Shown piece by piece: positions 5,861-53,356 of a DNA stretch of 64,000 nt. The notes beneath the pieces were generated by a model, which saw only the letters and a program-made list of their open reading frames with translations, was not told the DNA's origin and made no database searches. The stretch covers positions 556,513-620,512 of the forward strand of contig NZ_FOKE01000002.1 of the NCBI RefSeq assembly GCF_900112065.1, read 5' to 3'. Every line of letters begins with the position of its first letter. Positions within the stretch are counted from its first letter, which is position 1. The position numbers and the translations under genes are program-made. The stretch is from Cohnella sp. OV330 (lineage in GTDB: Bacteria > Bacillota > Bacilli > Paenibacillales > Paenibacillaceae).

Positions 5861-6041
5861 TTTGAGCGCTGCAGCGTTGGTTTTCTAGCTTGCAGCTGCG
5901 GCAACGGGAAGTTTGGGCGCTGTAAAGGCGCTTTTCTCGCTTACATGGGAGCTTGGTCGCTGCAGCGGTGCTTTTCTCGCTTGCAGCGGTGGCCGCGGGA
6001 AGTCTTCGCGTTCTAACGGTACTTTTCTAGCTTGCTCTTTT
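5861..6041. repeat. Intergenic tandem array A (four units, 51/40/51 bp spacing)
   Basis: Four degenerate units begin at 5861, 5912, 5952 and 6003. Each has the form (T)TnGnCGCTG..., then CTTTTCTnGCTT, and the longer ones end in a G/C-rich block closing CGGGAAG. Units 1 and 3 contain the palindrome CGCTGCAGCG and a downstream TGCAGC that can pair with GCTGCA. The array fills the gap between convergent genes cls and the acyltransferase-like gene. No coding potential. Confidence 0.85.
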
Positions 6042-6062
6042 GCCTCCCGCTCCCCGCCTTCT

Positions 6063-6878
6063 TCAATGATGTGCGAAAATACCCAATCCGGCTCCCAGCT
6101 TGCCTCCCGCAACCAAGCGCGCCTTGGCCCGCCGCTGCAGGCCGGTGCTCGCGTCGTAGGCGGCAGGATCGGCCTGCAGCGCGCCGAAGATCCGTTCCTC
6201 CGCTTGCCTGGACGCCTCGTCCACCTCATAGATCGCAAACAGTCGCTGGAACTGCATGATGTTCGAGGCCGGGTCCAGCAGTTGGTCCAGGCCCGGGTAC
6301 AGCAGCCAGGAATGGCAGACGAATACCGGCGGCACGCCCCGGAAAAAGGCGCGCGCTTGCGCGAAGGACGCCAGCGCCGCCTGCGGCTCCAACGGCTCGC
6401 CCGCTGGGATGTGGACGTTCAGCACGAGGTCTCCTTTCGCGAACTTCCGATCTCCTACGATCAAATCGCGATCGAGCGGGATCGGCTGAAACTGCAGCCG
6501 ACCGAGCCGGAACAAAGCAAGGCGCACATGCTCCTGCAGCCAGCCCGATTCCTCGATGCCGTATTCCCCGAACGTCGCCTTGCAAACCTCGCTCCAGATC
6601 CGGATATCCGAGAACGTCTCGAAATATACCTCGTCCGGGATTTCTCTCAACCGGTACTCCGCATAAGCGTCCACGGCCATTTTCATAAAGAAGTACAAGA
6701 AGAATGGCCTGCGATCCGCCCGCTGCCTGACCGAAGCCAGCATGGCTTCGCGATCGTTTTGAAAAAAAGCTTTGTGCGCGGGAAAGTCGCCGCTCTCTAA
6801 CCGATCATAGTCCAGCACGAGCGCCGATGCGTCCTCATGCAGTCGGATCGCCGTTGCAAGACTCGCGATATCCATCAT
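6063..6878 (-). CDS. Acyltransferase domain-containing protein (GNAT-like, two-domain)
   Basis: A 271-residue soluble protein. An N-terminal helical half is followed by a C-terminal half with LNVHIPAGEPL and VCHSWLLYPGL, which I associate with the acyltransferase/GNAT-like N- and C-domain family of Paenibacillaceae; assignment is from remembered family motifs. Substrate unknown. Tandem ATGs at 6878 and 6875 follow GGAG by four and seven bases. It is convergent with cls, and array A lies directly past its stop codon. It stands 60 bases downstream of the UbiD gene and may be co-transcribed. Confidence 0.65.
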   Translation of the reverse strand: MMDIASLATAIRLHEDASALVLDYDRLESGDFPAHKAFFQNDREAMLASVRQRADRRPFFLYFFMKMAVDAYAEYRLREIPDEVYFETFSDIRIWSEVCKATFGEYGIEESGWLQEHVRLALFRLGRLQFQPIPLDRDLIVGDRKFAKGDLVLNVHIPAGEPLEPQAALASFAQARAFFRGVPPVFVCHSWLLYPGLDQLLDPASNIMQFQRLFAIYEVDEASRQAEERIFGALQADPAAYDASTGLQRRAKARLVAGGKLGAGLGIFAHH

Positions 6879-6938
6879 TCGACTCCGCCTCCGTTCGTCA
6901 AAACGGGACGCAAAAATGCGTCCCGCCCTGTGCTCGTA

Positions 6939-8714
6939 TTAAGACTTGCGAATCCCGTACTCCCGCCACCTGTCGTCCACGAGCTTCACGATGTCCTCGC
7001 GCGGGAACAACTCGTCCGGATAGCCCGGCTTCATGCGCGCGTCGATGACGATCGGCAGTGCGTAACCGATGTGATGACGGCTCGCGATCGTCTTGGCGTA
7101 CATGTCATGCGCAGGGTTGAACCGCGTGAACACGGTCCAGAGAAACTGCCGCTCGGACTCCGCGATCCCGGCGTCGTCCGCCAGCACGACGAGCGGCCAC
7201 TGCCAGCCGTCGTGCGCGGACAGCGCCTCCGCGAGCCGCTCCGCCAGCTCCGGCTCGCGCTCGAACGCGTCGCCGCGAACGACGAGACAGCCCGGGCCGA
7301 AGACGCGGATGTCCGCGATGCCCGGCAGATCCCCGCCCGCATACGTGTGCGGCAGTTCGCGGATCGGATCGCCGACGCCCAGCATGACGGCCTTCGAGCC
7401 GTGATTGAGCCTGCGGCCGGTGTAGTCCAGCGTGTCGTGCGACGTATTGTCGAACACGAACAGGTCCTTTAGCGGGTCGAACCGCTCCAGCACCGTCGTC
7501 AGCAGCTCGGAAAAATGCTCCAGCTCGACTGGACGGTCCGTCAGCATGAGGAATTTGGTCAGCGACAGCTGCCCCTGTCCGAGGATGCTGAACGCCGTGC
7601 CGAGCGCCTCGCGCGAATAGCTCTCGCGGACGACGGCGGACGCGAGAGCGTGGAAGCCGGTCTCGGCGTATGTCCACAGGCTGCGGATGCCCGGCATGAC
7701 CATCGGAAACGCCGGCGACAGCAGCCGCTGCAGAAACTCGCCTAGGTAATAGTCCTCCTGGCGTGGCTTGCCGACGATCGTCGCCGGATAGATCGCGTCC
7801 TTGCGGTGCCAGACATGGTCGACGTTAAACACCGGAAAGTCATGCGTCAGCGAGTAATAGCCGAAGTGATCGCCGAACGGCCCCTCGGGGCGGCGCAGAT
7901 GCGGCGGCACGCTGCCCTTGATCGCGAACTCGGCCTCTGCCGGGATGCGATGGCCGCCGAGCGGATCCTCCGCCATCGGGAGCTTGCCGCCCAAGATGAG
8001 CGAAGTCAGCAGCAGCTCCGGCAGCCCTTCGGGCGCGGGCGCGATCGCCGAAGCGATGAGCGCGGGCGGACCGCCGAGGAAGACGGATACCGGCAGCGCG
8101 CGGTTCATCTGCTCCGCCTCGTGATAGTGGAAACCGCCGCCCTTGTGAATCTGCCAGTGCATGCCGGTCGTCGAATCGTCGTACACCTGCATCCGGTACA
8201 TGCCGAGATTATGCTTCTTGCCGTGCGCCGGGGACTCGGTGTAGACGAGCGGCAGCGTGATGAACGGGCCGCCGTCCTCCTGCCAGCAGGTAAGCGCCGG
8301 CAGTCCGGCCAGCGGCCGCTCGCGCTTCGCGACGCCGAGCACCGGCGCCGCGTCCTGCGATACTTTCTTCATGCCGACCTTCATCAGGTCCAGCAGCATA
8401 TCCTTCTCCCGCCAGAGCGCGGGCAACGTCGGCGGCATTAGCGTGTCCATCGCGCCGATCAACCGGTTCACGAGCTGCTCGGGCCGCGGACCGAACGCCT
8501 GATCCACGCGGCGGCTCGTCCCGAACAAGTTGGTGACGACCGGGAAGGCGGCGCCTTTGACATTCGTGAACAGCAAAGCCGGGCCCTCTGAATCGATGAC
8601 CCGGCGATGTATCTCGGCGATCTCCAGCACGGGATCGACCGGCGTCTCGATGACCGCCAGGTCGCCCTCTTTCCTCAGCATTTCCAAAAAAGGACGAAGC
8701 GAAGAAAAACTCAT
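6939..8714 (-). CDS. UbiD-family prenylated-FMN decarboxylase
   Basis: A 591-residue decarboxylase of the UbiD fold. The prFMN-binding region GMYRMQVYDD carries the conserved Arg, and EGPFGDHFGYYS carries the catalytic acid pair five residues apart. Family members remove carboxylate from aromatic or polyprenylated aromatic acids, and long forms like this are often annotated as menaquinone-pathway decarboxylases; no mqn genes are in the window, so the substrate is open. No UbiX (prFMN synthase) is adjacent. ATG start with GGAGG five bases upstream; 18 bases downstream of ctaA, so probably co-transcribed with it. Confidence 0.9.
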   Translation of the reverse strand: MSFSSLRPFLEMLRKEGDLAVIETPVDPVLEIAEIHRRVIDSEGPALLFTNVKGAAFPVVTNLFGTSRRVDQAFGPRPEQLVNRLIGAMDTLMPPTLPALWREKDMLLDLMKVGMKKVSQDAAPVLGVAKRERPLAGLPALTCWQEDGGPFITLPLVYTESPAHGKKHNLGMYRMQVYDDSTTGMHWQIHKGGGFHYHEAEQMNRALPVSVFLGGPPALIASAIAPAPEGLPELLLTSLILGGKLPMAEDPLGGHRIPAEAEFAIKGSVPPHLRRPEGPFGDHFGYYSLTHDFPVFNVDHVWHRKDAIYPATIVGKPRQEDYYLGEFLQRLLSPAFPMVMPGIRSLWTYAETGFHALASAVVRESYSREALGTAFSILGQGQLSLTKFLMLTDRPVELEHFSELLTTVLERFDPLKDLFVFDNTSHDTLDYTGRRLNHGSKAVMLGVGDPIRELPHTYAGGDLPGIADIRVFGPGCLVVRGDAFEREPELAERLAEALSAHDGWQWPLVVLADDAGIAESERQFLWTVFTRFNPAHDMYAKTIASRHHIGYALPIVIDARMKPGYPDELFPREDIVKLVDDRWREYGIRKS

Positions 8715-8732
8715 ATGATTCCTCCAATGACG

Positions 8733-9764: not shown

Positions 9765-9921
9765 ATTCCATCCCTAATTTCTATAATGAAGTAGTCGGCT
9801 TCAGCCCGTTTTCATTATACCCGAGCGATTGCGGTCAATGCTATGTTCAAACTGTGAACGGTCCCGAACATTGTGAAGAGTGTCACAAAGGCGTCGAATT
9901 TGATCGGCGAGGCCTCGTTGA

Positions 9922-9982
9922 CGCATAAAGAAACACGGGAAAAAGCAGGTGTTTCCTGCATCGTCCCGTGTTTCGTTATGCG
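9922..9982. repeat. Long nested inverted repeat (61 bp)
   Basis: Arms of 19 nt at 9922-9940 and 9964-9982 match except for one base. Inside the loop a second hairpin forms (GCAGG / CCTGC). No T run follows on either strand, so it is not a standard terminator. It lies between ctaA and array B in a 530-bp non-coding gap (9765-10295). Confidence 0.8.
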
Positions 9983-10031: not shown

Positions 10032-10291
10032 GATAACCGTTTTTTTCGGCTATCTCGACCGTTTCGCCGGTCCGCAGAGCGCCGATAGCCGATTTTTTCG
10101 GCTATCTCGGCCGTTTCGCCGGTCCGCAGAGCGCCGATAGCCGATTTTTTCGGCTATCACGACCGTTTCGCCGGTCCGCGGAGCGCCGATAGCCATTTTT
10201 TCGGGCTATCACGACCGTTTCGCCGGTCCGCGGAGCGCCGATACCCGATTTTTTCGGCTATCTCGGCCGTTTCGCCGGCCCGCAGGCCGGC
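10032..10291. repeat. Intergenic tandem array B (five units, exact 52-bp period)
   Basis: Units begin at 10032, 10084, 10136, 10188 and 10240, a constant 52-bp step. Each opens with a hairpin whose arms are GATAGCCGA and TCGGCTATC around four Ts, followed by a nearly invariant spacer containing CCGTTTCGCCGGTCCGC. Variation is confined to a few positions (for example GATAACCGT in unit 1). It sits immediately past the stop codon of the thioredoxin-like gene. The period is not a multiple of three, so it is not a coding repeat. Confidence 0.95.
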
Positions 10292-10295
10292 ACGG

Positions 10296-13801: not shown

Positions 13802-13821
13802 ACCGGGACGCGACCGCCCGT

Positions 13822-17479: not shown

Positions 17480-19528
17480 TTAAGGCTGCTGCGTCATGTC
17501 GACCGCCACGTTCGTCACGATCGGCGGCCTTGGACCTGCGTCCGTCAGGCCGACCTCGGCGTCGTACGCGTCGAAAATCTTGCGCGCGATCGGCGCCGCG
17601 CCCCAGCCGCCGTACCCGCCGTCCGGCACGATGACCGCGACCGCGAGCTTCGGCTTATCCTGCGGGGCGAACGAGATGAAGACGGCGTTCTCGACGAACT
17701 TGCGCTTGCCGACGCCCTGCTGCTGCGACGTGCCGGTCTTGCGGTAGAAGTCGTAGCGCACGCCTTCGAAGCCTTCCACCTTGACCTGTGCCATGCCGTT
17801 TTCGATCGTCTTCCAGTACGAATCGGGCAGCTTGATCTCGTTCAGCACCTCGGGCTTCATCGTCGTCACGACGGTGCCGTCCGCGTCCGTCGTATGGTCG
17901 ACGAACAGCGGCTTCATCCGCTTGCCGTGGCTGGCGAGCGTCGCGGCGTACTGGGCGAGCTGCAGCGCCGTATACTTGCCCTGCTGGCCGAACGAGGAGT
18001 AGATCATCGCGGACTGGTAGCTGTCCCGCGTCGCGCTGTTGAAATAATCCACGATGCCCGGCGATTCCTTCGGCAGTCCGCTGCCGGTTTTGACGCCTAG
18101 GCCGAACTCCTTCATGTGCTTATCCCAGATGTCGACGCTTTCTTTCTTATATTTGATATACAGCGCGTTACCTACCATTTTGGCCATAAACGCATTCGAA
18201 GACTTGGCGATCGCCCTCGTAGGCGTCAGCTCGCCGTTGTACGAGCGTCCCGCATTCTGGACTTCAGCCTGATCGTCGCGCCCGAATTTGAAGTAGCCCG
18301 GATCCGTCCATGTAGACGAAGGCGTGATCAACTTTTCCATGAGCCCGGTCAGAATCGTCAGCGGCTTCTGCGTGGAGCCCAGCGGCACGAGCGACGTCGG
18401 ATGCTGCGAGCGCTCCTTCGGATCGTCGTATGGCGGGAACACCTCGCGAATCGCGCCGTTGCCCATCGCAGGCGTGATCGCGTCAAGCTCCTCTTGACTG
18501 ATGCCGCCCTGCCATACATTCGTGTCGTAATCCGGCATGCTCGCCATCGCCACGACCTTGCCCGTAGCCACCTCGATCGCGACCGCATAGCCCGTCGTCG
18601 GCTGCGCGTCCTTCAGCGTCTTGACCGTAGACGCGCGGGTCGTCGCGATCTGGTCGAGGATCGCTTGCTGCGCGGTGAGCTGCACGTTGCGGTTGATCGT
18701 AAGATAAAGGTTCTGCCCCTTGACCGGCTTGGTCAGCTTCATGTCCCCGACGATCCGGCTCATGCTGTCGATCTGGTAGGACTTGTAGCCGTTCAGGCCG
18801 CGCAGCTCCTTCTGGTACATGAGCTCGATGCCGTCGTAGCCGACATCCTCCGTATCCAAGTATTTCAGCGCCGGATCGGACTGATCCTCGTTGATTTTTT
18901 TGTAAAAATCGAGATTCTGCTTGGCGCCCTTCATCTTGGCCATATAACCGACCAGCTGCGCGGCGACCCGGTCCGGACTGTATTGGCGGATGCTCTCCTC
19001 CACGATCTCCACGTCCGGATATTCGTCGCGATGCTCGCTGAGGTAGGCGATCTCTTCCTTCGTCAGTCCGGACTTGATCCGTCGCTGCTGGAACGGCAGA
19101 TGCGTTCTTCCCTTGATATCCATGGCTTTGACGACGTCCTCCGCCGTCATCGGCTCGGCCGCCGGATCGCCCTTATCGTTGAACAGCTTCACGAGCTTCG
19201 CGGCCATTCCCTCCGCCGTCTCCTGCTTCATGCCCGTCTTCAGCGTGAAGTAAAGGGACTGCGTAGAGATGGAATAGGCGATTCGCTGTCCTTTGGAATC
19301 GTAAATATTGCCGCGGATCGGCGGGATGGACACGCCCTTCGTGATCAAGCTCGTCTGGCGTTCCTTGAGGCTCGGGCCTTCGACGAACTGGAGATACGCC
19401 AGCCGTACGATCAGCATGGAAAATAGGAGAAAGGTGAGCATGAAAAAAACGTTCAGCCGGATGCTGAAGTGACGACGGTTGCGTGATTCCTTTTTTTTCT
19501 GCTCTTCTGTCTTGACTTCGGCGTTCAT
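17480..19528 (-). CDS. Class B penicillin-binding protein (PBP2-like), copy 1
   Basis: A 682-residue peptidoglycan transpeptidase with one N-terminal membrane anchor (residues ~25-45), a dimerisation/pedestal domain with RGNIYDSKGQRIAY, and a transpeptidase domain. The catalytic motifs are STQK (SxxK), SSN (SxN) and KTG in RKTGTSQQ. The shape fits the PbpA/PbpH/MrdA elongation group. Start ATG 19528 (MNAEVK) follows GGGAGG by 11 bases; upstream in-frame codons are not needed. A close paralogue lies at 23528, with a two-component operon between the two. Confidence 0.94.
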   Translation of the reverse strand: MNAEVKTEEQKKKESRNRRHFSIRLNVFFMLTFLLFSMLIVRLAYLQFVEGPSLKERQTSLITKGVSIPPIRGNIYDSKGQRIAYSISTQSLYFTLKTGMKQETAEGMAAKLVKLFNDKGDPAAEPMTAEDVVKAMDIKGRTHLPFQQRRIKSGLTKEEIAYLSEHRDEYPDVEIVEESIRQYSPDRVAAQLVGYMAKMKGAKQNLDFYKKINEDQSDPALKYLDTEDVGYDGIELMYQKELRGLNGYKSYQIDSMSRIVGDMKLTKPVKGQNLYLTINRNVQLTAQQAILDQIATTRASTVKTLKDAQPTTGYAVAIEVATGKVVAMASMPDYDTNVWQGGISQEELDAITPAMGNGAIREVFPPYDDPKERSQHPTSLVPLGSTQKPLTILTGLMEKLITPSSTWTDPGYFKFGRDDQAEVQNAGRSYNGELTPTRAIAKSSNAFMAKMVGNALYIKYKKESVDIWDKHMKEFGLGVKTGSGLPKESPGIVDYFNSATRDSYQSAMIYSSFGQQGKYTALQLAQYAATLASHGKRMKPLFVDHTTDADGTVVTTMKPEVLNEIKLPDSYWKTIENGMAQVKVEGFEGVRYDFYRKTGTSQQQGVGKRKFVENAVFISFAPQDKPKLAVAVIVPDGGYGGWGAAPIARKIFDAYDAEVGLTDAGPRPPIVTNVAVDMTQQP

Positions 19529-19628
19529 CTCGAAGCTTCCCTCCCGGCTCGGACTCTCTATCATTCTAGCATAAATGCGTTCGCGGAGCAGGCGGCCGAT
19601 ATTCCTGCATCCCGAGGTCCTATTCGCC

Positions 19629-19669
19629 AAAAAAACACCGGCCGCCGCTCTTGGGGAGCAGGGCCGGTG
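19629..19669 (-). terminator. Intrinsic terminator after SLH remnant
   Basis: CACCGGCC (19636-19643) pairs with GGCCGGTG (19662-19669); on the minus strand it ends GTTTTTTT. Confidence 0.9.
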
Positions 19670-25552: not shown

Positions 25553-25645
25553 AAGGCAGTTCCTCCTGTAAATGCTTGGCCCGCAAGCGGACCCTCATGC
25601 CGATGCGGCCGCGGTATGGACCGTCGGTACTGCAGGCGATGTCGC

Positions 25646-25927
25646 GATAGCGGCATTTTTTGCCGCTATCGGACGCCGCACACACTTTTCTAGCGCAATA
25701 GCGGTGTTTTTTACCGCTATCGGACGCCGCGCACGCTTTTCTAGCGCAATAGCGGCATTTTTTGCCGCTATCAGACGCCGCGCACGCTTTTCTAGCGCAA
25801 TAGCGGCGATTTTTGCCGCTATCAGACGCCACGCACGCTTTTCTAGCGGAATAGCGGCATTTTTTGCCGCTATTTGACGCCGCACAAACATTTTTAGCGG
25901 AATAGCGGTGGCTTTTGCCGCTATCGG
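25646..25927. repeat. Intergenic tandem array C (six units, exact 51-bp period)
   Basis: The ATAGCGG landmark recurs at 25647, 25698, 25749, 25800, 25851 and 25902, every 51 bp. Each unit has a hairpin (arms ATAGCGGCA-like and TGCCGCTAT around a T-rich loop; compensatory changes such as GGTG/TACC-type pairs occur), then a spacer GACGCCGCGCACGC and TTTTCTAGCG. Because 51 is a multiple of three, both strands show open frames, which I treat as artefact. It lies between the transglutaminase gene's 3' end and the PBP gene's 5' end. Confidence 0.95.
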
Positions 25928-29439: not shown

Positions 29440-29620
29440 TAGCGATGTACGACATCTCAATTTTGCGTGACATGGGGCGCTTCGTCCCGATAGCGATGCG
29501 ACATATCTTATTTCGCAAAAAATAGGGCGCTATCTCGCAATAGCGATGTGCCGTATCGTTATTTCGCAAAAATCGGGGCTCTATCCCGCAATAGCGATTT
29601 GCGGAATCACTATCTGCATC
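29440..29620. repeat. Intergenic tandem array D (four units, 50-51 bp)
   Basis: TAGCGAT recurs at 29440, 29491, 29541 and 29592. Each unit continues with an AT-rich stretch (ATTTCGCAAAA in the middle units) and closes GGGGC or GGGCGCTAT before CCCGCAA/CTCGCAA. GATAGCG and CGCTATC within a unit can pair over a long loop. It fills the gap between the convergent MFS and ABC transporter genes. Confidence 0.88.
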
Positions 29621-39905: not shown

Positions 39906-41000
39906 ATGACTTTAACCGCGCTGCGCGGCGCGACTTGGGCGGCTGCCGCCGGATGCTTATATGTGGTTTGGAAACTGAATCCGAACTGGCCGTCCGTCTT
40001 TTTTCGTTCTTTCTTTTCCGTCCTGCTCGACGCGTTTCCCTTTCTCGTGCTCGGCGCCCTGGTCTCCGCGGCGCTGGAGACGTTCGTGAGCGACAAACTC
40101 GTCCGCGCCGCCGCTCCCAAGAGCCGGCTGGGCGGCGTGCTGTTCGGCAGCCTGCTCGGCCTCGCGCTCCCGCTGTGCGAGTGCGGCATGATCCCCGTCG
40201 CCCGCCGCCTGATCCGCAAAGGACTGCCTGCATACATCGGCATCGTCTATATCATCGCCGGCCCGGTCGTCAATCCCATCGTCTTCGCGTCCACGGTTGC
40301 CGCGTTTGACGGCGATCCGTCGATGGCCTTCGCCCGCTTGCTGCTCGCCCTGGCCGTCGCGATAGCCGCAGGCACGGCCCTGCTGCTCTTCCTGCGGCGA
40401 AACCCGCTCAAGGAAGAGGCAGGTCCGATCGGATGCACACATGGGCATGAGCACGGCCATAGTCATGAGCATGAGCATGGGCACGGGCACGGGCATGAGC
40501 ACGGGCACGGGCACGGGCACGGGCACGGGCACGGGCACGGGCACGGGCATGGGGCTTCCAAGGCGGCGGGGCGGCGCGCGCGCATGTCGACGGTCCTCTC
40601 GTCCATCTCCTCCCATGCCATGATCGACCTTCGCGACATGGGGAATTATTTATTGATCGGAGCCGCATTGACGGCACTCGTTCAGACCGTGCTTCGGTCG
40701 CAGACATTGGAGGCCGCGGCGGGCCACAACTGGTTGTCGCATATTTTCCTGATGGGCTTCGCATTCCTGCTCTCTCTTTGCTCCACATCCGACGCCTTCG
40801 TGGCAGCACCTCTCGACGGCTTATTCCATCCCGGGGCCATTCTTGCCTTCCTCGTCTTCGGACCCATGATCGACCTCAAGGGCTTGACCGTCATGCTGTC
40901 CGTCTTCCGCAAAGGCTTCGTCATCCGGTTCGCGCTGCTCGTCTTCGCGCTCGTGCTGGCCGGCTCGATCTTGGCCGAAAGACTGCGGTTGCTGAATTGA
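39906..41000 (+). CDS. DUF318/YraQ-type permease with His-Gly metal loop
   Basis: A 364-residue permease with two blocks of about four helices each, containing LPLCECGMIPVARRLIRKGLP in the first and SLCSTSDAFVAAPLDGLFHPGA in the second, as in YraQ/YcgR permeases. The cytoplasmic or outer loop between the blocks is a ~40-residue tract of alternating His and Gly/Glu, a probable divalent metal (Zn, Ni, Co) binding loop. The DUF1980 partner (YcgQ) that usually accompanies YcgR is absent. Start ATG 39906; GAGGAG lies 11 bases upstream, so an upstream GTG is possible. Confidence 0.88.
   Translation: MTLTALRGATWAAAAGCLYVVWKLNPNWPSVFFRSFFSVLLDAFPFLVLGALVSAALETFVSDKLVRAAAPKSRLGGVLFGSLLGLALPLCECGMIPVARRLIRKGLPAYIGIVYIIAGPVVNPIVFASTVAAFDGDPSMAFARLLLALAVAIAAGTALLLFLRRNPLKEEAGPIGCTHGHEHGHSHEHEHGHGHGHEHGHGHGHGHGHGHGHGHGASKAAGRRARMSTVLSSISSHAMIDLRDMGNYLLIGAALTALVQTVLRSQTLEAAAGHNWLSHIFLMGFAFLLSLCSTSDAFVAAPLDGLFHPGAILAFLVFGPMIDLKGLTVMLSVFRKGFVIRFALLVFALVLAGSILAERLRLLN
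40441..40552 (+). repeat. GGGCAC hexanucleotide repeat inside permease gene
   Basis: From 40503 to 40550 the unit GGGCAC is repeated seven times perfectly and closes with GGGCAT; looser copies with GAGCAT extend back to 40441. It encodes the (Gly-His)n loop. As the unit is six bases, length changes stay in frame. Confidence 0.95.
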
Positions 41001-45592: not shown

Positions 45593-45597
45593 CGTTT

Positions 45598-47097
45598 TTA
45601 AGCGGATGAAACGTTTAGCGCCCGCAGCACTTGGAGCAGATAAAGCCATGTCCGTTCGACGGAGGAGATCCTGAATCGCTCGTCGGGCGTGTGGATGTCG
45701 TAAAGGTCGGGCCCGTACGAGACGGCATCCAGGTCCGGCATCTTGTCGGCGAATATCCCGCATTCGATGCCCGCATGCACCGCCTTGACCTCCATCGGCT
45801 TCCCGTATTCGCGCCTATAGACGTCTACAAAAACTTCGCGCAGCCGGGACGTCATCCGGTACGGCCAGCCGGGATAGTAATCTCCCGCCTCGAAGCCGCA
45901 GCCGAGTACGCGGGCGAGCGCCTCCATCCTGCTCATGGCCGCTTCGAGCTCCGATCTGAGCGAACTCCGCATCAGGCTCTCGAAGCGCACGCCCTCCTCG
46001 GTCAATTTCACGATCCCCACGTTGGTCGACGTGCGCGGCAATCCCGGGATCGCCTTGTCCATCCGGAGGACGCCGTTCGGGACGAGCAGCAGCGAATCGA
46101 CGAGCGTGCTTTTCGACGCTTCGGAAAATACACGCGCCGCCCCGTCCTCATCGATCTTGGCGGCATCGTCCGCCTCGAACGAGACGCTCACGCCCGGATC
46201 GGACACCGCATACTCCGCTCTGAATTTTGCCTCCCATTCCCGCGCTTCCTCTGCGGCCTCCGCCAATCGCGCCTCCGGCACGTATAAAGACGCCTCGGCC
46301 TCCCGCGGGATCGCATTGGACGCCAAGCCGCCCCCCACGTCCGCGATCGCGTACGGCAGCCGCTTGCGCAAGCCGTCGAGCACCCGTCCGAGCAGCTCGC
46401 AGGCGTTGGCTCGCTCGTGGACGATATCGTCGCCCGAATGCCCGCCGACGAGGCCGAATACGCGCAGCCGCCCCGGGCGCCCGGCCCCGGCCGCATCCGT
46501 CCAAGCGACGGGCACCGTGTGGTAAGCCCGCGCCCCGCCGGCGCTGCTGACGTAGAGGATGCCCTCCCGGTCGGAATCCAGGTTGATCATCGTTCGGCCT
46601 TGCAGCAGGCCGGGATCGAGCTTTCTCGCGCCTTTCATCGACGTCTCTTCCTCCGTCGTCAGCACGATCTCGAGCGCAGGATGCTCGGCATCGCGGGCAT
46701 CGAGCAGCGCCATCGCGAAGGCGACGCCCAGACCGTTGTCCCCGCCGAGCGTGGTGCCTTCGGCCGTCATGAAGTCGTCGTCCAGCCGCAGCCGAATCGA
46801 ATCTCTCAGGAAGTCGTGCGCGACCCCCTCGTTTTTTTCCCCGACCATGTCCAGATGGCCCTGTACGATAACCGGCGGCGCCTGTTCGTAACCTTGCGAG
46901 GCCGGCTTGCGAATGACGAGATTCAACGAAGCGTCCTGGATGGTTTCGTATCCGCGCGCTCTCGCGAATGCTGCCACGTAGTCGCTGGCGGCCCGCTCAT
47001 GGCCCGAGCTCCGCGGGATGGCGGACAGCGCCTCGAAGTACGGAATGACGGGACAGTCGCCCCGATAAAGCCTCGATTCTGCATTCGCGCCGCTCAT
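45598..47097 (-). CDS. pepD: Aminoacyl-histidine dipeptidase (M20C)
   Basis: A 499-residue zinc dipeptidase cleaving Xaa-His dipeptides such as carnosine. Metal ligands sit in VQGHLDMVGE, TTLGGDNGLG and LTTEEETSM, and the C-terminal GIECGIFADKMPDLDAVSYGP contains the last ligand region; a lid domain is inserted mid-protein. Length matches E. coli PepD (485). ATG start with GGAGG ten bases upstream. Divergent from ylbJ. Confidence 0.93.
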   Translation of the reverse strand: MSGANAESRLYRGDCPVIPYFEALSAIPRSSGHERAASDYVAAFARARGYETIQDASLNLVIRKPASQGYEQAPPVIVQGHLDMVGEKNEGVAHDFLRDSIRLRLDDDFMTAEGTTLGGDNGLGVAFAMALLDARDAEHPALEIVLTTEEETSMKGARKLDPGLLQGRTMINLDSDREGILYVSSAGGARAYHTVPVAWTDAAGAGRPGRLRVFGLVGGHSGDDIVHERANACELLGRVLDGLRKRLPYAIADVGGGLASNAIPREAEASLYVPEARLAEAAEEAREWEAKFRAEYAVSDPGVSVSFEADDAAKIDEDGAARVFSEASKSTLVDSLLLVPNGVLRMDKAIPGLPRTSTNVGIVKLTEEGVRFESLMRSSLRSELEAAMSRMEALARVLGCGFEAGDYYPGWPYRMTSRLREVFVDVYRREYGKPMEVKAVHAGIECGIFADKMPDLDAVSYGPDLYDIHTPDERFRISSVERTWLYLLQVLRALNVSSA

Positions 47098-47304
47098 TGG
47101 TCGCGCCCCTCCTTGATGTCGTTTCTTTTACGAAAAGCTTGCGCGGCAAGCCGCTTTGACAGCCCATGCTTGCAATATATAGCAGCGGCTCCCCTTAAGC
47201 AACCAAGGTCCGGCAAGCGCAATGCGCCGACCTTGAAATTTTCCGGCCGGCCGCGCATATACTCGGACAAGAGAGTAGCTTGGTCCAGGGAAGGAAGTGC
47301 GCTT

Positions 47305-48471
47305 GTGTCCGACTTCATCTTGTCGCGAAAAGGAAGCGCCGGCTTCGTCCGAAGAGGGCTGCGGCTGGCAGCGGTGACCGGGGCGGGCGCATGCGTCCTG
47401 CTCGTCGGGCTGCTCGTCCTGCTCATGCCCGGCATCGCGCTCGAAGCCTCGCTCAAAGGCTTGTCCGTCTGGTGGGAAGTGCTGTTTCCCGCCTTATTTC
47501 CCTTCTTCGTCCTGTCCGAGGTACTTCTCGGATTCGGCATCGTCCATCTGGCCGCCGCGCTGCTCGATCCGCTCATGCGGCCGCTGTTCCGCATTCCCGG
47601 GGCAGGCGGCTTCGTGCTGGCGCTAAGCTTTGGGGCCGGCTATCCGATCGGCGCCCGCCTGACGTCCCGGCTCATGGAGCAGAATTTGCTGAGCCGAGGC
47701 GAAGGCGAGCGATTGGTCGCGATGACGACGACCAGCGATCCGATTTTCCTCATCGGCGCGGTCAGCCTCGGATTTTTCGGCCGGCTTGACATCGTGCCGG
47801 TGTTGGCCGCGGCGCATTACGGCGGGGCGATGCTGCTCGGATTGCTGCTGCGGTGGCGCAAGGACGAGCCCGAGCCGGAGGAGCGCGCAAGGCCGGCCCC
47901 TGAAACGCCTGCTTTCGGCGATGAAAACCGGCTTCCCGAATCCAAGCTTGGTCTCGGCAGAGTCAAACAGGCGATCCTCGCGATGCACGAAGCGCGCATG
48001 GCGGACGGACGGCCATTCGGCATCGTGCTGAACCAGGCCATAAAATCCTCGCTCGCCCTCATGATCGTCGTCGGCGGACTGGTCGTCTGCTTTTCGGCCA
48101 CGCTACAGCTGCTTCTGCACAGCGGACTGCTGCTGCCGTTGAAGCACGTTATCGTCCTCGTCCTTCAGACCGTGGGCCTCGAGCCCGGTCTCGCCGGCGC
48201 CTTCGTGCAAGGCGCGTTCGAGGTGACGCTGGGCAACGCCGCGTCGGCAGCCGGAGCCGGTCCGGACGGCGTACCCGCCGCATTGATCGACCGCGTCGCG
48301 GTCGCTTCGTTCGTCCTGGCTTGGGCCGGCCTGTCCGTGCACGCGCAGGTCGCGGGACTCATGGGACGCACCGGCTGGCGGTACGGCCCCTTCGCGCGCG
48401 CGCGGCTGCTGCACGCGGCGATCAGCGTCGCGCTCGTCTACTTGCTCTGGCCCTGGCTTTATGCGGGCTGA
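47305..48471 (+). CDS. ylbJ: Sporulation integral membrane protein YlbJ
   Basis: A 388-residue polytopic membrane protein with two nucleoside-transporter-gate-like halves: FGAGYPIGARLTSRLMEQ and TTTSDPIFLIGAVSLGFF in the first, AFVQGAFEVTLGNA and the C-terminal helices in the second. YlbJ is expressed under sigma-E and needed for heat-resistant spores. GTG start at 47305 has AAGGAAG seven bases upstream. A ~75-residue hydrophilic linker separates the halves. Confidence 0.92.
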   Translation: MSDFILSRKGSAGFVRRGLRLAAVTGAGACVLLVGLLVLLMPGIALEASLKGLSVWWEVLFPALFPFFVLSEVLLGFGIVHLAAALLDPLMRPLFRIPGAGGFVLALSFGAGYPIGARLTSRLMEQNLLSRGEGERLVAMTTTSDPIFLIGAVSLGFFGRLDIVPVLAAAHYGGAMLLGLLLRWRKDEPEPEERARPAPETPAFGDENRLPESKLGLGRVKQAILAMHEARMADGRPFGIVLNQAIKSSLALMIVVGGLVVCFSATLQLLLHSGLLLPLKHVIVLVLQTVGLEPGLAGAFVQGAFEVTLGNAASAAGAGPDGVPAALIDRVAVASFVLAWAGLSVHAQVAGLMGRTGWRYGPFARARLLHAAISVALVYLLWPWLYAG

Positions 48472-48561
48472 TCGCCGCGCCGACATTGTCTTAAGCGCGG
48501 ATATTGTTTATCATCTATGTCAGACAACGATTGAGCGCTTAAGCTGGGAAGGAGCATTCCA

Positions 48562-49422
48562 TTGAAGTATGCGCTGCTCGACAGGGGCGATTCGCTGTCC
48601 CGCGAACTTGCGGAGTCGTTCCACAAGCTCGCGCGCGAACGCGGGCTGACGTCCAACCCCGGCAGTCCGGATCTGATCGTCTCGATCGGAGGCGACGGGA
48701 CGCTGCTGCAGGCCTTTCATTCCTTCGCGGACCGCGTCGAGGACGTGGCCTTCGTCGGCGTGCACACGGGCCACCTGGGATTTTACGCCGATTGGAAAAA
48801 AAACGAGCTCGAGGAACTGGTCACGCTGATCGCGTCCACCGAGCCGCAGAAGGTCAGCTATCCGTTGCTCCATATTCAGGTCGTCACGGATACGGAGACC
48901 AAGTCTTATCTTGCCCTGAACGAATTTACGCTCAAACGGCCCGGCGGCACGCTGGTCGCCCAGCTTAACATTAACGACGAGCCTTTCGAGATGTTCCGCG
49001 GGGACGGCATCGTCGTCTCCACGCCTTCGGGGAGTACGGGATACAACAAGAGCGTGCACGGCGCCATCCTCCACCCGTCGCTCGAGGCGCTGCAGATCGC
49101 GGAACTGGCGTCCATCAACAACCGGATTTACCGTACGCTCGGGTCGTCCGTCATCCTCCCGAAGCATCATCATTGCGATATCGTGACCGACCCGTCCGAC
49201 GATCTCTCGCTGCTCGTCGACCATCTGACCTTGCGTTTTCAAGGCGTTCGCTCGATTATTTGCACGGTCGCGGAGCAAAAGATCCACTTCGCCCGTTATC
49301 GGCCGCATCCGTTCTGGAATCGGGTTCGCAACGCGTTCATCGGATCGCCGAAGGAAATCGTGAGCCAGGACTTCCCTCGCAAAAAGTTCATCGGCTTGGA
49401 CGAAAAAGAGGAATCCAAGTAA
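48562..49422 (+). CDS. NAD kinase
   Basis: A 286-residue cytosolic kinase phosphorylating NAD to NADP. The nucleotide motif SIGGDGTLLQ is near residue 43, the NE motif in LALNEFTLKR and the STGYN segment in VSTPSGSTGYNKS. Firmicutes often hold two NAD kinases; the C-terminal tail (PRKKFIGLDEKEE) fits the second type. ATG start with GGAAGGAG nine bases upstream. Followed by a terminator. Confidence 0.95.
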   Translation: MKYALLDRGDSLSRELAESFHKLARERGLTSNPGSPDLIVSIGGDGTLLQAFHSFADRVEDVAFVGVHTGHLGFYADWKKNELEELVTLIASTEPQKVSYPLLHIQVVTDTETKSYLALNEFTLKRPGGTLVAQLNINDEPFEMFRGDGIVVSTPSGSTGYNKSVHGAILHPSLEALQIAELASINNRIYRTLGSSVILPKHHHCDIVTDPSDDLSLLVDHLTLRFQGVRSIICTVAEQKIHFARYRPHPFWNRVRNAFIGSPKEIVSQDFPRKKFIGLDEKEESK

Positions 49423-49436
49423 AGCTGGCGCGGCTT

Positions 49437-49496
49437 CCGCTGCCTGCCGTCTCCGCTGCTGCACCCCGGTGCGATGGCGGAGGCAGCGGGCTTTTT
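49437..49496 (+). terminator. Terminator of NAD kinase gene
   Basis: CCGCTGCCT pairs with AGGCAGCGG, followed by GCTTTTTCG. Confidence 0.75.
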
Positions 49497-49510
49497 CGTG
49501 TCTCAAATGC

Positions 49511-49559
49511 AAAAAAGACCGGCAGGCTGCAGTCTATCGCCGCCCTGCCGGTCTTTTTT
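49511..49559 (-). terminator. Terminator of yutD-like gene
   Basis: AAAAAAGACCGGCAGG pairs with CCTGCCGGTCTTTTTT; on the minus strand a clean T run follows. Confidence 0.9.
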
Positions 49560-49574
49560 GCTTTCCAATTCTGC

Positions 49575-50795
49575 TTATTCGCCTGTCGGAGCGCCCCGTT
49601 CGGGTTTGCTCCCGCCATCGGCACGCGGTCCGCCGCCGGAACGGGAGGCGCCGCCGTTCGGCCGTTCGGGCCGCTGGCCATGATCGAACCGTTCAGGGCG
49701 CGGACCCTGGTCGAAGCGATCGCTCCGTTCGGGCCGCTGGCCATGATCGGGCCGCTCGCCGCGCTGGCCTTGCTCGGTCCGATGGCCTCCGTCGTGCCGC
49801 GGCTTGCCGGAGGACTGGCCCTGCTGCTGCCCGCCTCCGGGGGAATACCTCGGCGGCGCATTCCCGCCGCCCGTCAACGGTCCTCCAGGCTGGCCCCCGC
49901 CTTGCGGCCCGCGGCGCCTGTTTTTGTTGTTCGGCCACTTGCCGGGCGCGCCGCCGCTGCGATGCCCGCCGCCCGGCGCGCCGCCGGATTGCTGGCCGCC
50001 GCCGCGATAGCCGCCGCCTTCGCCGCCGGAAGCCGACGCGCGATCGCCGGCATCCCGAGGATGCTGGCGATGCTCTTGCTTGTTGTAGCCGCCGGACTGG
50101 GTTCGCCGCTCATATCCCCCGCCGGAAGCGCCGCGGTAACCGCCGCCTCCCGGCTTGCGGTCACGACCGTCGCCGCCGCGTTCCTGGCGGGCGCCGTCGA
50201 AGGGGCTGCCGCGCCCGTACATCTCGTCGCGCGAGCTCGCGGCCGCGGTCTGGGCCGCGGCTGCCCGCCGCTCCGCGCCTTCGGATACGGCGCGCGCGAC
50301 CGCGGACGGGCTCGTCCCCGGCACCCGGCCTCCCGGCCTTTCCTTCAGCGGCCAGCGCATGAGCATGCCGCCCGACGGCAGCGAGATCGCGGCTGCGGGC
50401 GCTTGAGCGGCCGGCTCGCCCTCTTGGCCGTCTTCGCCGTCGCCTGCGGCTTGCTCCGCGGCCGGCGCGCCGGTCGGCAGCTCTTCCAGCCGTACGCCCG
50501 CGCCTTCGGGCACGGCGGCAGGATCTAGCTTTTCGATGACGAAGTAAGCGCAGCCGAAATTGCAATATTCGTGTATATATTCATACAGATGCGAAATGAC
50601 GGATTCCTTCGGCGCCTTCGGCTGCGGATCGCGGAAAAACCCGCGCAGCCGCAGCTGGCTGTAGCCCCAGTCGCCGACGATATAATCGTATCGCTCCAGC
50701 ACCTCGCTGAATCTTTCCCGGAACGCTTCGGGATTCCATCCGTTCTTATGGTCGTGAACAACCGAATAGGCGCTGTTCCCGGTCAGATAGATCAC
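49575..50795 (-). CDS. yutD: YutD-domain protein with long RGG/Pro-Gly-Arg disordered tail
   Basis: A 406-residue protein. Residues 1 to ~95 are a YutD (DUF1027) domain (GNSAYSVVHDHKNGWNPEAF, DYIVGDWGYSQLRLRGFF, HEYCNFGCAYFVIEK). Bacillus YutD ends near there (~100 aa). Here about 300 further residues are low complexity: an acidic/Ala-rich stretch, then Gly/Arg/Gln/Pro-rich repeats with GGGYRG, GQRPER and PERFDHG-type units. No membrane segment or signal. Position next to lipA is conserved with Bacillus. The tail suggests RNA or protein condensation behaviour (inference). Confidence 0.85.
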   Translation of the reverse strand: MIYLTGNSAYSVVHDHKNGWNPEAFRERFSEVLERYDYIVGDWGYSQLRLRGFFRDPQPKAPKESVISHLYEYIHEYCNFGCAYFVIEKLDPAAVPEGAGVRLEELPTGAPAAEQAAGDGEDGQEGEPAAQAPAAAISLPSGGMLMRWPLKERPGGRVPGTSPSAVARAVSEGAERRAAAAQTAAASSRDEMYGRGSPFDGARQERGGDGRDRKPGGGGYRGASGGGYERRTQSGGYNKQEHRQHPRDAGDRASASGGEGGGYRGGGQQSGGAPGGGHRSGGAPGKWPNNKNRRRGPQGGGQPGGPLTGGGNAPPRYSPGGGQQQGQSSGKPRHDGGHRTEQGQRGERPDHGQRPERSDRFDQGPRPERFDHGQRPERPNGGASRSGGGPRADGGSKPERGAPTGE

Positions 50796-50880
50796 GCAAG
50801 GCTCTCCTTCCGTCTCCCGTGCACCGGCCGCAGGCGGCCGCGCGCGAATAAGGTATTCATGGCCGTCGGCGCGATAGCCG

Positions 50881-51813
50881 TCAGCCGCCAGATGCCGCCG
50901 TCGCCGGTACGGTCTCGGGCGTCGCTTGAGCGGCGGACGCGGTCGCCGCCGCGGACTTCACCTGCGAATGCGCATGGTAGGAGCTGCGCACGAGCGGCGC
51001 TGACTCCACGTGCGAGAAGCCGCGCGCCAGGCCTTCGGCCTTGAGCTGCTTGAATTCGTCCGGATGGACGTAGCGCGCGATCGCCATATGCGCGGGGCTC
51101 GGCTGCAGATACTGACCGAGCGTCAGGATATCCACGTCGTTCGCCCGAAGATCGTCCATCGCGGCCAGCACTTCCTCGTAGGTCTCGCCTACGCCGAGCA
51201 TGATGCTGGACTTCGTCGGAATCTTCGGCGCCAGCTCCTTGGCTCTGCGCAGCAGCTCGAGCGACCGCGGATACTTGGCCTTCGCGCGCACGCGGTTCGA
51301 CATCCGCGCTACCGTCTCGATGTTGTGGTTCAGAATGTCCGGTTTGGCGTCCATAACGATGCGCAGCGATTCGAGATCTCCCTGAAAATCCGGAATCAGC
51401 ACCTCGACGCTGCAAAGCGGCAGCTTGCGCCGGATCGCCTTGATCGTGGCCGCGAAGATCGATGCCCCGCCGTCCTTCAGGTCGTCCCGCGCTACCGAGG
51501 TGACGACGCAGTGCTGCAGGTTCATCTGCTCGGCGGCCTCGGCCACCCGCTCCGGCTCCTGCAAGTCGAGCTCCGTCGGCAGCCCCGTCTTCACCGCGCA
51601 GAAGCGGCATGCTCTCGTGCAAATATCGCCTAGTATCATAAAGGTTGCCGTGCGATTTGCCCAGCATTCGTATATATTGGGACACCGTGCTTCTTCGCAG
51701 ACCGTGTGGAGGGTCTTGGTCCTCATCATCTGCTTGATTTCCTGATAATTGTCGCCGGTCGTCAGCTTGATGCGCAGCCAGTCGGGCTTGGGCGTCTTCT
51801 CGCCGTTCTTCAT
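50881..51813 (-). CDS. lipA: Lipoyl synthase
   Basis: A 310-residue radical SAM enzyme inserting two sulfurs into octanoyl-protein to form lipoyl groups on 2-oxoacid dehydrogenases and GcvH. The auxiliary cluster ligands are in [12 protein letters not shown] and the SAM cluster in CTRACRFC (CxxxCxxC). The C-terminal RSSYHA segment carries the conserved RSSY motif. ATG start 51813, after GGGGG. Followed by yutD in the same direction; divergent from the lytH-like gene, as in the Bacillus yut-yun region. Confidence 0.97.
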
Positions 51814-51921
51814 GCCATTCCCCCGCTTTCTGTCCTTTATTATAGCATGATTCACATAAAAACCAACGTTCTGCAAAGGCTACGGATACTTGGGAAAGGG
51901 GAGTCGATGCGAGGTGGCGTC

Positions 51922-52965
51922 ATGTTAGAACGGTTAAGACGGCAGGCAAGCTGCCTCCGGCGTCCGCTGCGGGTGGCGGCGGCATCTGCCCTGGGCTTTG
52001 CGTTGGCATCTCATGTTCACGGGCAGGAGCCCGGTGCCGAGGACAAAGCGCGGCGCGAGCTGTACGACCATGTCGCGGCGATCACGGGAATGACCTGGCA
52101 AAAGGTGGCCGCCGTCGATCAATACGAGCGCTCGATGTCGCGTCTTCGGCCCAAGGAGCGCCCGCTCGGCGAGCATGCGGTCAGCGGGGCTTACGTCGCG
52201 CCCGAGCGATGGGCCGGCGCGCTCAATCCGGACCCGGAGGACCGCTCGCCGCTCTCGATCGCTATATTCGGCGGCATCGGCCGCGATGGGTCCGGCGACG
52301 GCAAGGCCGACAGGAACAACGACGTCGACAGGCTCTATTCGGTCGTGCGGCAGACCATGCTCCAGGGGCCGGGCGCCGACAATATGGCGATCGGGCTGTG
52401 GGAGTATTACCAGAGCTCGAGAGCCGTGCAAAGAGTCCAGCAATTCGACAAGCTCTACTCGTCGTTCGGTACGCTGAACTTGTCCAAGCACGTATTCCCG
52501 CTGCCGCTGAACAGCGTCTATTCCTACCGAAGCACCTGGGGCAACAGGCGCGGATGGGGAGGCGCGAGAATCCACGAAGGGACGGACATTTTCGCCGGCC
52601 AGGGAGTACCCGTGCGCAGTACCTGCTACGGCGTCGTGGAGGTCAAAGGCTGGAACAAATTCGGCGGTTGGCGCATCGGCATCAGGGATATCGACAACCT
52701 GTATCATTACTACGCGCACCTGTCGGGATTCGATAAAAGCATCAGGACCGGGGATGTCGTGGAGCCCGGCCGCGTGATCGGGTGGGTCGGCAGCTCGGGT
52801 TACGGGAGACCGGGTACGCAGGGCAAATTCCCGCCGCATCTGCACTACGGCGTCTACCGGGACCGAGGATTGGTGGAATGGGCGTTCGACCCGTATCCGA
52901 TGCTTCACAGCTGGGAGCGGTCCGAGCTCAAGGCGCTACGGAACCGCAAAGGGGGCGGCGGGTGA
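51922..52965 (+). CDS. lytH: M23 peptidase, LytH-like L-Ala-D-Glu endopeptidase
   Basis: A 347-residue secreted/membrane peptidase: basic N terminus, one hydrophobic segment (about residues 15-32), then a helical region and a C-terminal LytM domain with HEGTDIF (HxxxD), HYYAHL and HLHYG (HxH) zinc ligands. The gene position beside lipA and near yunB equals Bacillus yunA (lytH), whose product trims cortex peptidoglycan late in sporulation. ATG 51922 follows GAGG by seven bases; ATG 51907 is an alternative. Array E starts about 45 bases past the stop. Confidence 0.87.
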   Translation: MLERLRRQASCLRRPLRVAAASALGFALASHVHGQEPGAEDKARRELYDHVAAITGMTWQKVAAVDQYERSMSRLRPKERPLGEHAVSGAYVAPERWAGALNPDPEDRSPLSIAIFGGIGRDGSGDGKADRNNDVDRLYSVVRQTMLQGPGADNMAIGLWEYYQSSRAVQRVQQFDKLYSSFGTLNLSKHVFPLPLNSVYSYRSTWGNRRGWGGARIHEGTDIFAGQGVPVRSTCYGVVEVKGWNKFGGWRIGIRDIDNLYHYYAHLSGFDKSIRTGDVVEPGRVIGWVGSSGYGRPGTQGKFPPHLHYGVYRDRGLVEWAFDPYPMLHSWERSELKALRNRKGGGG

Positions 52966-53011
52966 GTCCGTATCGGCTAATAACGGATTCAACGGGACCG
53001 GATGAGAACGA

Positions 53012-53216
53012 GTTAGCCGATTTTTCCGGCGATCGGCAGCCTCAGCAGCCCAGCGGGGCACGAGAGTTAGCCGGTTTTTCCGGTTATCGGCAGCCTCAAC
53101 GGCCCGGCGGGGCACGAGTTAGACGGTTTTTCCGGCTAACGGCAGCCTAAGGGGCCTGGCGGAGCACGAGTTAGCCGGTTTTTCCGGCTAACGGCAGCTC
53201 CAGTGGACCAGCTCAG
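53012..53216. repeat. Intergenic tandem array E (four units, 52-54 bp)
   Basis: GTTAG landmarks at 53012, 53066, 53118 and 53170. Units 2-4 carry arms GTTAGCCGG (or GTTAGACGG) and CCGGCTAAC/CCGGTTATC around a T-rich loop, followed by GGCAGCCT and a G/C spacer ending GGCACGA. Unit 1 is degenerate. The array lies between the convergent lytH-like and ribokinase genes. Confidence 0.93.
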
Positions 53217-53225
53217 CATGATAGC

Positions 53226-53356
53226 CGAACTTGCGCTAATCGTCATCATGCTCCAAGTGACTGAGGTGCGCCGTTAGCGCCTATTTGCGCTTATCGGCGC
53301 CGCAACGACCGCCACGCAGCCTCCGTTAGCTCCCATATGCGCTTATCGGCGCAGCC
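53226..53356. repeat. Second sub-array E2 (three degenerate units, 52-54 bp)
   Basis: CCGTTAG begins at 53271 and 53323 (52 bp apart), each followed by a short loop and TTGCGCTTATCGGCGC or ATGCGCTTATCGGCGC. A weaker copy (TTGCGCTAATCG) lies 54 bp before the first. Same period as array E but a different hairpin. Confidence 0.7.

What the first reader, a model, noticed from the sequence alone, without database searches (positions are those of the whole stretch)
5861..53356. Five locus-specific intergenic tandem arrays share a 51-52 bp period and a hairpin-with-T-loop architecture
Five gaps (5861-6041, 10032-10291, 25646-25927, 29440-29620, 53012-53356) each hold a tandem array. Period is 52 bp x5 exactly (B), 51 bp x6 exactly (C), 51/50/51 (D), 54/52/52 (E) and 51/40/51 (A). 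B, C and E carry the same structural idea, a TAGC...GCTA stem of 9-10 bp closing on a T-rich loop, but each locus has its own stem and spacer sequence. So the arrays are homogenised within a locus and diverged between loci, while length and form are kept. 51-52 bp is about five helical turns, which would place all hairpins on one face of DNA (inference). I know of no named family matching this; it could be a REP/MITE-like element amplified in place, a nucleoid-protein site, or a transcription-collision/termination buffer.
Basis: partly seen in the sequence, partly recalled or inferred. Interest (0 to 1): 0.85.

Follow-up and report, generated by a model that had tools for sequence, protein, structure and literature searches.

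The report
Intergenic repeats spaced exactly 51 bases
Between the genes of Cohnella and some related soil bacteria lie repeats whose short, often palindromic cores recur while the linkers look random, yet the cores sit about 51 bases apart, close to five turns of DNA, which suggests that the spacing itself matters.

Summary
The five arrays are real and the stated periods are right to the base. The genome is a Cohnella. Of 1,256 Cohnella intergenic regions, 95 hold repeats and 54 of these have a primary period of 50-52 bp (38 exactly 51); in 702 regions of other records, nearly all Paenibacillus, it is 1 of 24. In the whole host genome, CCGCTAT core-arm pairs allowed to lie 37-67 bp apart are 50-52 bp apart in 98 of 100 listed (of 123) matches. 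Linkers of different loci are 26-32% identical, near random. Six genomes of other genera, picked because they had such pairs, hold mostly isolated pairs: 89 of 120 at 50-52 bp, 10 at 62-63. About 40% of arrays have no clear hairpin, so spacing is more general than the hairpin. Arrays are rare between divergent genes and lie 3' of genes. A REP transposase, the STAR motif, intrinsic terminators and Rfam families are not supported. Best reading: DNA-level, helically phased sites of a REP/BIME/STAR-like kind, spacing held by selection or by a duplication ruler. The mechanism is inferred; function is untested.

The parts
5867..6033 (.). Array A: TTTTCT(A/C)GCTT-bearing units at 51/40/51 bp (TRF period 91 x 1.8), between the 3' ends of a PLD-domain gene (+) and a GNAT_C/NAT_N gene (-), beyond a terminator-like hairpin (5788-5819)
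10032..10285 (.). Array B: 5 units of 52 bp, hairpin GATAGCCGATTTTTTCGGCTATC, 10 bp beyond the stop of a thioredoxin gene (-), upstream of a COX15-CtaA gene (-)
25643..25927 (.). Array C: six cores at exactly 51 bp, hairpin ATAGCGGCATTTTTTGCCGCTAT, downstream of a transglutaminase-domain gene (-) and upstream of a penicillin-binding-protein gene (-)
29440..29620 (.). Array D: four TAGCGAT-bearing units at 51/50/51 bp with weak, imperfect hairpins, between convergent MFS (+) and ABC transporter (-) genes
53008..53198 (.). Array E, first part: four cores like GTTAGCCGGTTTTTCCGGCTAAC at 54/52/52 bp, downstream of an M23 peptidase gene (+)
53220..53356 (.). Array E, second part: three cores of a different type (GTTAGCGCCTATTTGCGCTTATC-like) that continue the spacing (50/53/52); a similar two-part order recurs at G000:C8 (locus L242, 6120-6496) beside other genes
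13802..13821 (.). Site F: 20-bp gap between convergent genes with no array here and none in G013; G012, G005 and C. rhizosphaerae carry a 51-bp array in this gap; G018 has 218 bp there with no TRF array

Best explanation
These are arrays of a dispersed intergenic DNA element found in Cohnella and in some other families of its order (the order name Paenibacillales is recalled). The element is a core of about 21-25 bp, often a hairpin-forming palindrome of one of several families. Cores stand 51-52 bp apart (less often 62-64 bp), mostly as isolated pairs in the other genera looked at and as arrays of about 2-19 cores in Cohnella. SHOWN: linkers near random between loci, spacing fixed, arrays mostly 3' of genes, gain and loss between close relatives, covarying inner stem pairs in one core family. 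INFERRED: the fixed spacing, close to five helical turns, puts successive dyads on one face of the duplex, so that a dimeric or architectural DNA-binding protein, or a topology-related activity as described for BIMEs and gyrase, can engage neighbouring cores together; local tandem duplication supplies new copies and linkers, and copies in register are kept and homogenised. Which protein, and what benefit, is unknown.
For: Spacing: 54 of 95 repeat-bearing Cohnella intergenic regions at 50-52; 98 of 100 listed (of 123) CCGCTAT pairs in the host at 50-52 with 37-67 allowed; 89 of 120 in six genomes of other genera with 35-65 allowed, the six being chosen for having matches. Linkers near random between loci: 0.29 in family I (8 loci, two of them orthologues of two others), 0.32 in II (12 loci, four being site C in four species), 0.26 in III (7); their cores score 0.78-0.89, but the core arms were fixed by the search pattern. 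Free of that: in G097, 25 of 44 listed matches compared, linker 0.33 and core positions outside the pattern 0.72; all-against-all unit comparison groups 27 of 38 arrays in five families. Unit length kept more than substitutions predict: 81 of 111 units with 3-12 mismatches unchanged in length vs 57 of 130 control blocks, p = 8e-6; with 0-2 mismatches 70 of 82 vs 51 of 64, no clear difference. 51-type arrays reach four or more copies in 32 of 48, other intergenic arrays in 0 of 18 by TRF copy number (1 of 18 if G013:66546 is read as 61.7 bp x about 8.6), p = 1e-5. Stem covariation score, paired cells and two-sided changes exceed all 500 shuffles. Second spacing near one more turn: 10 of 120 at 62-63, 24 of 30 in G075 at 63-65 with 63-93 allowed. 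Non-51 lags lean to whole turns, p 0.012-0.033 at a fixed turn length. Position: divergent gaps depleted, convergent enriched.
Against: No protein is identified. The helical test is p = 0.06 once the turn length is scanned, and 64 minus 52 is 12, not 10.5. Several unrelated core families argue against one sequence-specific protein. Some 51-bp arrays have no hairpin. Two of the five covariation measures do not exceed shuffles (pairs changed on both sides 365/500, further pair types 91/500). A mutational ruler would also give a fixed spacing. The unit-length test may be biased because TRF finds regular arrays more easily. In 77 of 119 genomes of the order the family II pattern at 50-52 bp has no match.
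Confidence: 0.45

Rival explanations
1. Mutational ruler: a replication, repair or recombination process duplicates DNA in steps of about 51 bp, perhaps primed by hairpins, and the arrays have no function. Spacing is fixed because the machine fixes it.
For: Unrelated unit groups (16 among 38 arrays) share the step; at site B the linker of G012 resembles, by eye, flank DNA present in the array-less G005; arrays come and go between close relatives at sites A, B and F.
Against: Isolated pairs in G097 and G128 keep 51 bp while linkers differ (G097 linkers measured near random), so spacing outlives linker identity. The two Cohnella intergenic repeats that TRF scores at 100% identity have periods 42 and 66 (G010:83550; L131:16578), not 51; two cases only. 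It does not explain recurring cores.
Confidence: 0.25
2. RNA level: transcribed 3' hairpins that protect or process mRNA, as proposed for some REP elements.
For: Arrays lie 3' of genes, closer to the upstream stop in 17 of 21 tandem cases; stems are mostly Watson-Crick paired (1685 of 1813 cells); on the gene strand of tandem arrays G-T mispairs outnumber A-C 26 to 10.
Against: By locus the G-T excess is 6 against 3 with 12 ties; loop polarity is inconsistent between tandem and convergent sites; a terminator-like site lies before the array in 5, after it in 4 and is not found in 25 of 34 tandem cases; some arrays have no hairpin; an exact 51-nt step has no evident RNA reason.
Confidence: 0.12
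3. Site-guided insertion: a mobile core is inserted at a fixed distance from an existing core by an unknown enzyme.
For: Isolated pairs with differing linkers at 51 bp in several genera of the order; shared two-part array at E and C8.
Against: No linked enzyme known: Y1_Tnp is in 12 of 37 Cohnella genomes and absent from the host, other enzymes were not tested; within arrays the linkers are homogenised, which fits duplication better.
Confidence: 0.1
4. Common descent of one 51-bp array with concerted evolution and no constraint on length.
For: Core families are shared by loci and species.
Against: Linkers are at or near random identity, yet spacing stays within 1-2 bp; control intergenic DNA with as many mismatches changes length more often; 16 unrelated groups.
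Confidence: 0.08

Closest known systems
STAR elements of staphylococci (PMC3532100; start of abstract and passages seen)
   Same: Intergenic tandem arrays of about 50-nt units, short conserved motif plus locus-specific linkers (40-44 bp at the gapR locus), copy number varies, linkers not exchanged between loci
   Different: STAR has one 14-bp GC-rich motif, not found in this window; here there are several, often palindromic cores, and a 51-bp spacing shared by unrelated core families and by isolated pairs
REP elements and BIMEs with RAYT transposases (PMC2817692; start of abstract and passages seen)
   Same: Intergenic palindromic cores, several families per genome, regular spacing in clusters; one genome (G075) shows 52- and 64-bp spacings in succession, which recalls short and long BIME linkers (recalled)
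   Different: No GTAG-type foot on the B, C and E cores; no RAYT in the host; linkers near random between loci with one main spacing; head-to-tail arrays of up to about 19 cores
Mycobacterial MIRU-VNTRs (recalled; nothing read on unit lengths)
   Same: Intergenic tandem units of about 50-80 bp
   Different: Recalled as one sequence family; not compared here
MITE-borne minisatellite of Porphyromonas gingivalis (PMC4596501; search listing and start of abstract only)
   Same: Short tandem units
   Different: Carried in a MITE; whether any of the present arrays lie in a MITE was not examined

Membership tests
REP/BIME | Intergenic palindromic core in many copies | tested here: met
REP/BIME | GTAG/GTGG-type conserved foot at one side of the hairpin | tested here: not met
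   cores B, C and E as read have GATAGCC, ATAGCGG and GTTAGCC feet; feet seen in the REP table of PMC2817692
REP/BIME | Associated RAYT (Y1_Tnp) transposase in the genome | tested here: not met
   PF01797 absent from host, G005, G012, G018; present in 12 of 37 Cohnella genomes, G013 among them
REP/BIME | Binding of gyrase, IHF or DNA polymerase I | not testable with these tools
   needs footprinting or ChIP
STAR element | 14-bp motif T(G/A/T)TGTTG(G/T)GGCCC(C/A) | tested here: not met
   0 matches in the window with up to 2 mismatches; 0 exact matches in 267 fetched loci
STAR element | About 50-nt tandem period, locus-specific linkers | tested here: met
   STAR description in PMC3532100
Known RNA family | Rfam match at gathering score | tested here: not met
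   0 matches in the window; other loci not scanned
Intrinsic terminator cluster | Hairpin followed by a U run | tested here: not met
   3 of 57 arrays contain a terminator-like site on the strand tested
Coding repeat | Excess of open frames through arrays | tested here: inconclusive
   18 arrays of period 51: 35 open frames against 28.9 expected from column-permuted units; arrays L250 and L251 overlap ORFs of the simple gene caller
CRISPR array | Constant repeat with unique spacers | tested here: not met
   linkers are homogenised within arrays

The most novel reading that the evidence does not exclude
A positional code spread over the order: DNA cores of many families must stand one precise distance apart, about five helical turns (sometimes six), whatever lies between them. 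This would be the footprint of an unknown nucleoprotein assembly that reads dyads on one face of DNA at gene 3' ends, or of an unknown machine that places new cores at that distance.
Probability: 0.4. Interest if true: 0.8.

Novelty: new variant of a known kind. Interest (0 to 1): 0.68.

Why it matters
Bacterial intergenic repeats are usually defined by their sequence. Here linker sequence is nearly free and spacing is the most general property, across unrelated core families and, for one core family, across several genera. That makes the question 'what reads or writes a 51-bp distance?' directly testable with spacing mutants, footprinting and pull-downs in cultivable soil bacteria, and it gives a new handle on why REP-like elements sit at gene 3' ends. 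No description of it was seen in the listings of the ten full-text searches made here; the library holds only openly licensed papers.

Tried and rejected
RAYT / Y1 transposase link: rejected for the host. Rfam family: none in the window. tRNA genes: none in the window. Intrinsic terminators: rejected. Coding arrays: no clear sign (the null was unsuitable for a period divisible by 3 and was replaced). RNA-strand test by G-T against A-C mispairs and by A/T loop polarity: inconclusive. The first indel test was flawed, because some self-alignments slid to zero offset; replaced by unit segmentation. Array G000_C16:7220 (period 315) was first counted as 51-type and later found irregular; it is left out of the 51-type set from then on but is inside the counts. 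Orthologous arrays of close relatives were counted separately, so the p values assume more independence than there is. G024 was left out because gene calling failed there (coding 0.38), as were coding-like repeats at G013b 118-121 kb; targeted loci were left out. The intergenic filter uses a simple ORF caller of my own: two 51-bp arrays of G041 (L250 6624-7073, 8.8 copies; L251 6198-7108, 17.9 copies) overlap ORFs it called and were therefore dropped from the array sets. The consensus-unit fold test used only the first sub-unit of multi-unit consensi and so understates hairpins. The three core families were collected with patterns that fix the core arms, so their core identity is partly by construction. 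Match lists are cut by the tool, so 'listed' is not 'all'.
Full report
OBSERVATION. Array E continues: three cores of a second type carry on the spacing (50/53/52) to 53347. Array A is a 51/40/51 composite.

GENOME-WIDE. In 860 kb of the host (window plus stretches), intergenic tandem repeats found by TRF have periods of 50-52 (10) and near-multiples 100-103 (6) and 153 (1) among 31 intergenic arrays of any period; coding repeats show none at 50-52. A lag test free of TRF gives 17 of 313 intergenic regions at lag 51, 7 at 50 and 5 at 52, with 0.0 in shuffles. Over 1,256 intergenic regions of Cohnella (34 pieces; G024 left out), 95 hold repeats and 54 have a primary lag of 50-52 (38 at 51); next come short lags (12-23, 18 regions) and 42 (3); for 702 regions from 56 other loci (Paenibacillus, two titled Bacillus) it is 1 of 24. 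Other Cohnella lineages also show it: G010 (50 bp x 14.7; 51; 258), G016 (51, 51), G003 (254), G024 (51, 50, 52, 153); G006 gave only a 42-bp repeat in 100 kb and G009 none in 40 kb. Distances between hairpins peak at 51, 102, 153 and 204. Pattern searches of the whole host genome with free distance: CCGCTAT pairs 98 of 100 listed at 50-52 (27 of 28 clusters; 123 matches in all); AGGCGAT pairs 81 of 100 listed (14 of 32 clusters, one of them, C13:462568, a single pair that looks coding; 214 matches in all), the other 18 clusters having scattered distances, 14 of them divisible by 3.

ANATOMY. 38 arrays (one later found irregular) fall into 16 unit groups, five of them with more than one array (13, 6, 3, 3, 2). 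Anchored on the core, different loci share the core and not the linker: family I 0.89 vs 0.29, II 0.79 vs 0.32, III 0.78 vs 0.26; the core arms were fixed by the patterns used, so the weight lies on the linker values. Family II is a 23-mer with a 9-bp stem and a 5-nt loop; its outer bases are constant by the way it was collected, its two inner pairs vary and covary (13 cells changed on both sides, covariation score 0.146 against 0.043, each 0 of 500 shuffles; number of pairs changed and of pair types not above shuffles). Hairpins in register occur in 22 of 37 arrays (counted), so the period is more general than the hairpin. Arrays E and C8:6120-6496 share a two-part order over about 350 bp beside other genes, with similar cores and diverged linkers.

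SPACING IS CONSTRAINED. Units with 3-12 mismatches to their consensus keep their length in 81 of 111 cases, against 57 of 130 blocks of ordinary intergenic DNA with as many mismatches between relatives (p = 8e-6; with 0-2 mismatches 70 of 82 against 51 of 64). TRF favours regular arrays, so this is not free of bias. 51-type arrays have a median of 4.8 copies, other intergenic arrays 2.45; four or more copies in 32 of 48 against 0 of 18, or 1 of 18 if G013:66546 is read as 61.7 bp x about 8.6. Sixteen non-51 lags lean towards whole turns from 51 (p 0.012-0.033 for a fixed 10.2-10.5 bp turn, 0.06 after scanning): suggestive only.

POSITION AND TURNOVER. Of 37 arrays with known context, 3 (two in one gap) are in divergent gaps (background 166 of 622, p = 0.007); convergent gaps are enriched (13 of 34 non-divergent against 68 of 456, p = 4e-4); in tandem gaps 17 of 21 are nearer the upstream stop (p = 0.007). 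Sites are gained and lost between close relatives: B is filled in the host, G012, G013 (two cores) and C. rhizosphaerae (one core) and empty in G005 and G018; F is empty in the host and G013, filled in G012, G005 and C. rhizosphaerae, and 218 bp without a TRF array in G018. At B the G012 linker resembles, by eye, flanking DNA that the array-less G005 also has, which suggests local duplication of core plus flank (one site only).

BEYOND COHNELLA. In 119 genomes of the order, 42 (host and G003 included) have CCGCTAT pairs at 50-52 bp; most of these have one to four matches, close to the reversed control. Eleven, the host included, have five or more on both strands together: G075 (83), G153 (57), G097 (42), G128 (25), G138 (12), G113 (11), G147 (10), G035, G057 and G124 (6 each), with reversed controls of 0-2 (host 7); the control itself reaches 12 in one genome, G141. 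With 35-65 bp allowed, six genomes of other genera, chosen for having matches, give 89 of 120 at 50-52 (71 at 51) and 10 at 62-63, in 96 clusters, so most are isolated pairs; this share is raised by the choice, least so in G097 (42 of 44) and G128 (25 of 45). Of the six loci fetched, the four with distances 50, 51, 52 and 62 lie outside called genes and the two with distances 36 and 54 inside. For G097, 25 of 44 matches compared: linker identity 0.33, core positions outside the pattern 0.72. With 63-93 bp allowed, G075 gives 24 of 30 at 63-65; the other five genomes show no such peak. Other core families were not surveyed outside Cohnella.

MECHANISM. The facts that need explaining are a fixed distance, a free linker, and recurring cores of several sequence families at gene 3' ends. 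A phased protein platform or a topology-related function acting on DNA explains all three with one assumption, selection on spacing (inferred, 0.45). A mutational ruler explains the distance but not the recurring cores nor the isolated pairs with differing linkers (0.25). RNA-level function lacks strand evidence (0.12). The two Cohnella intergenic repeats scored at 100% identity have periods 42 and 66, which would fit births at various lengths with retention at 51, but two cases prove nothing.

KNOWN KINDS. In form it works like REP/BIME and STAR elements (passages of PMC2817692 and PMC3532100 seen) but fails defining features of both: no RAYT and no GTAG foot; no STAR motif. Hence a new variant of a known kind. 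The main text of the RepRanger paper (PMC12306157) holds neither Cohnella nor Paenibacillus (term search).

Noticed in passing
window 17480-19630 and 23528-25552: Two paralogous genes on the minus strand (the second a penicillin-binding protein by Pfam, the first not scanned), about 72% identical in DNA, about 4 kb apart; cross hits show both in G012, G013 and G018.
   Followed up: no
window 40440-40553: CATGGGCACGGG-type repeat inside an ORF, with 6-, 18- and 24-bp periods.
   Followed up: no
G005 stretch (C304), 46309-51346: A 318-bp unit repeated 15.8 times inside called coding sequence.
   Followed up: no
G018, between orthologues of window 6755 and 6939: About 12 kb of extra DNA in G018 at this point.
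   Followed up: no
G075 contigs C1, C22, C37: Cores in succession at 52, 64 and 52 bp, which recalls short and long BIME linkers.
   Followed up: partly
G097 and G128 pairs: Many linkers hold GGGAAAT direct repeats a few bases apart, recalling half-sites of the Noc-binding sequence (recalled, not tested).
   Followed up: no
L172:17832-18414 (Paenibacillus nanensis): A 51-bp array of 11.4 copies, the only intergenic TRF array of period 51 among the 56 non-Cohnella loci.
   Followed up: no
G041:C28:85146-86105 (L251): Nineteen family II cores, 51 bp apart except a first step of 72 bp (51 plus 21); the stretch overlaps an ORF of the simple gene caller.
   Followed up: partly
L267 (G097), about 1424-1560: Three cores read by eye, the first inverted, at roughly 62 and 51 bp.
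   Followed up: no
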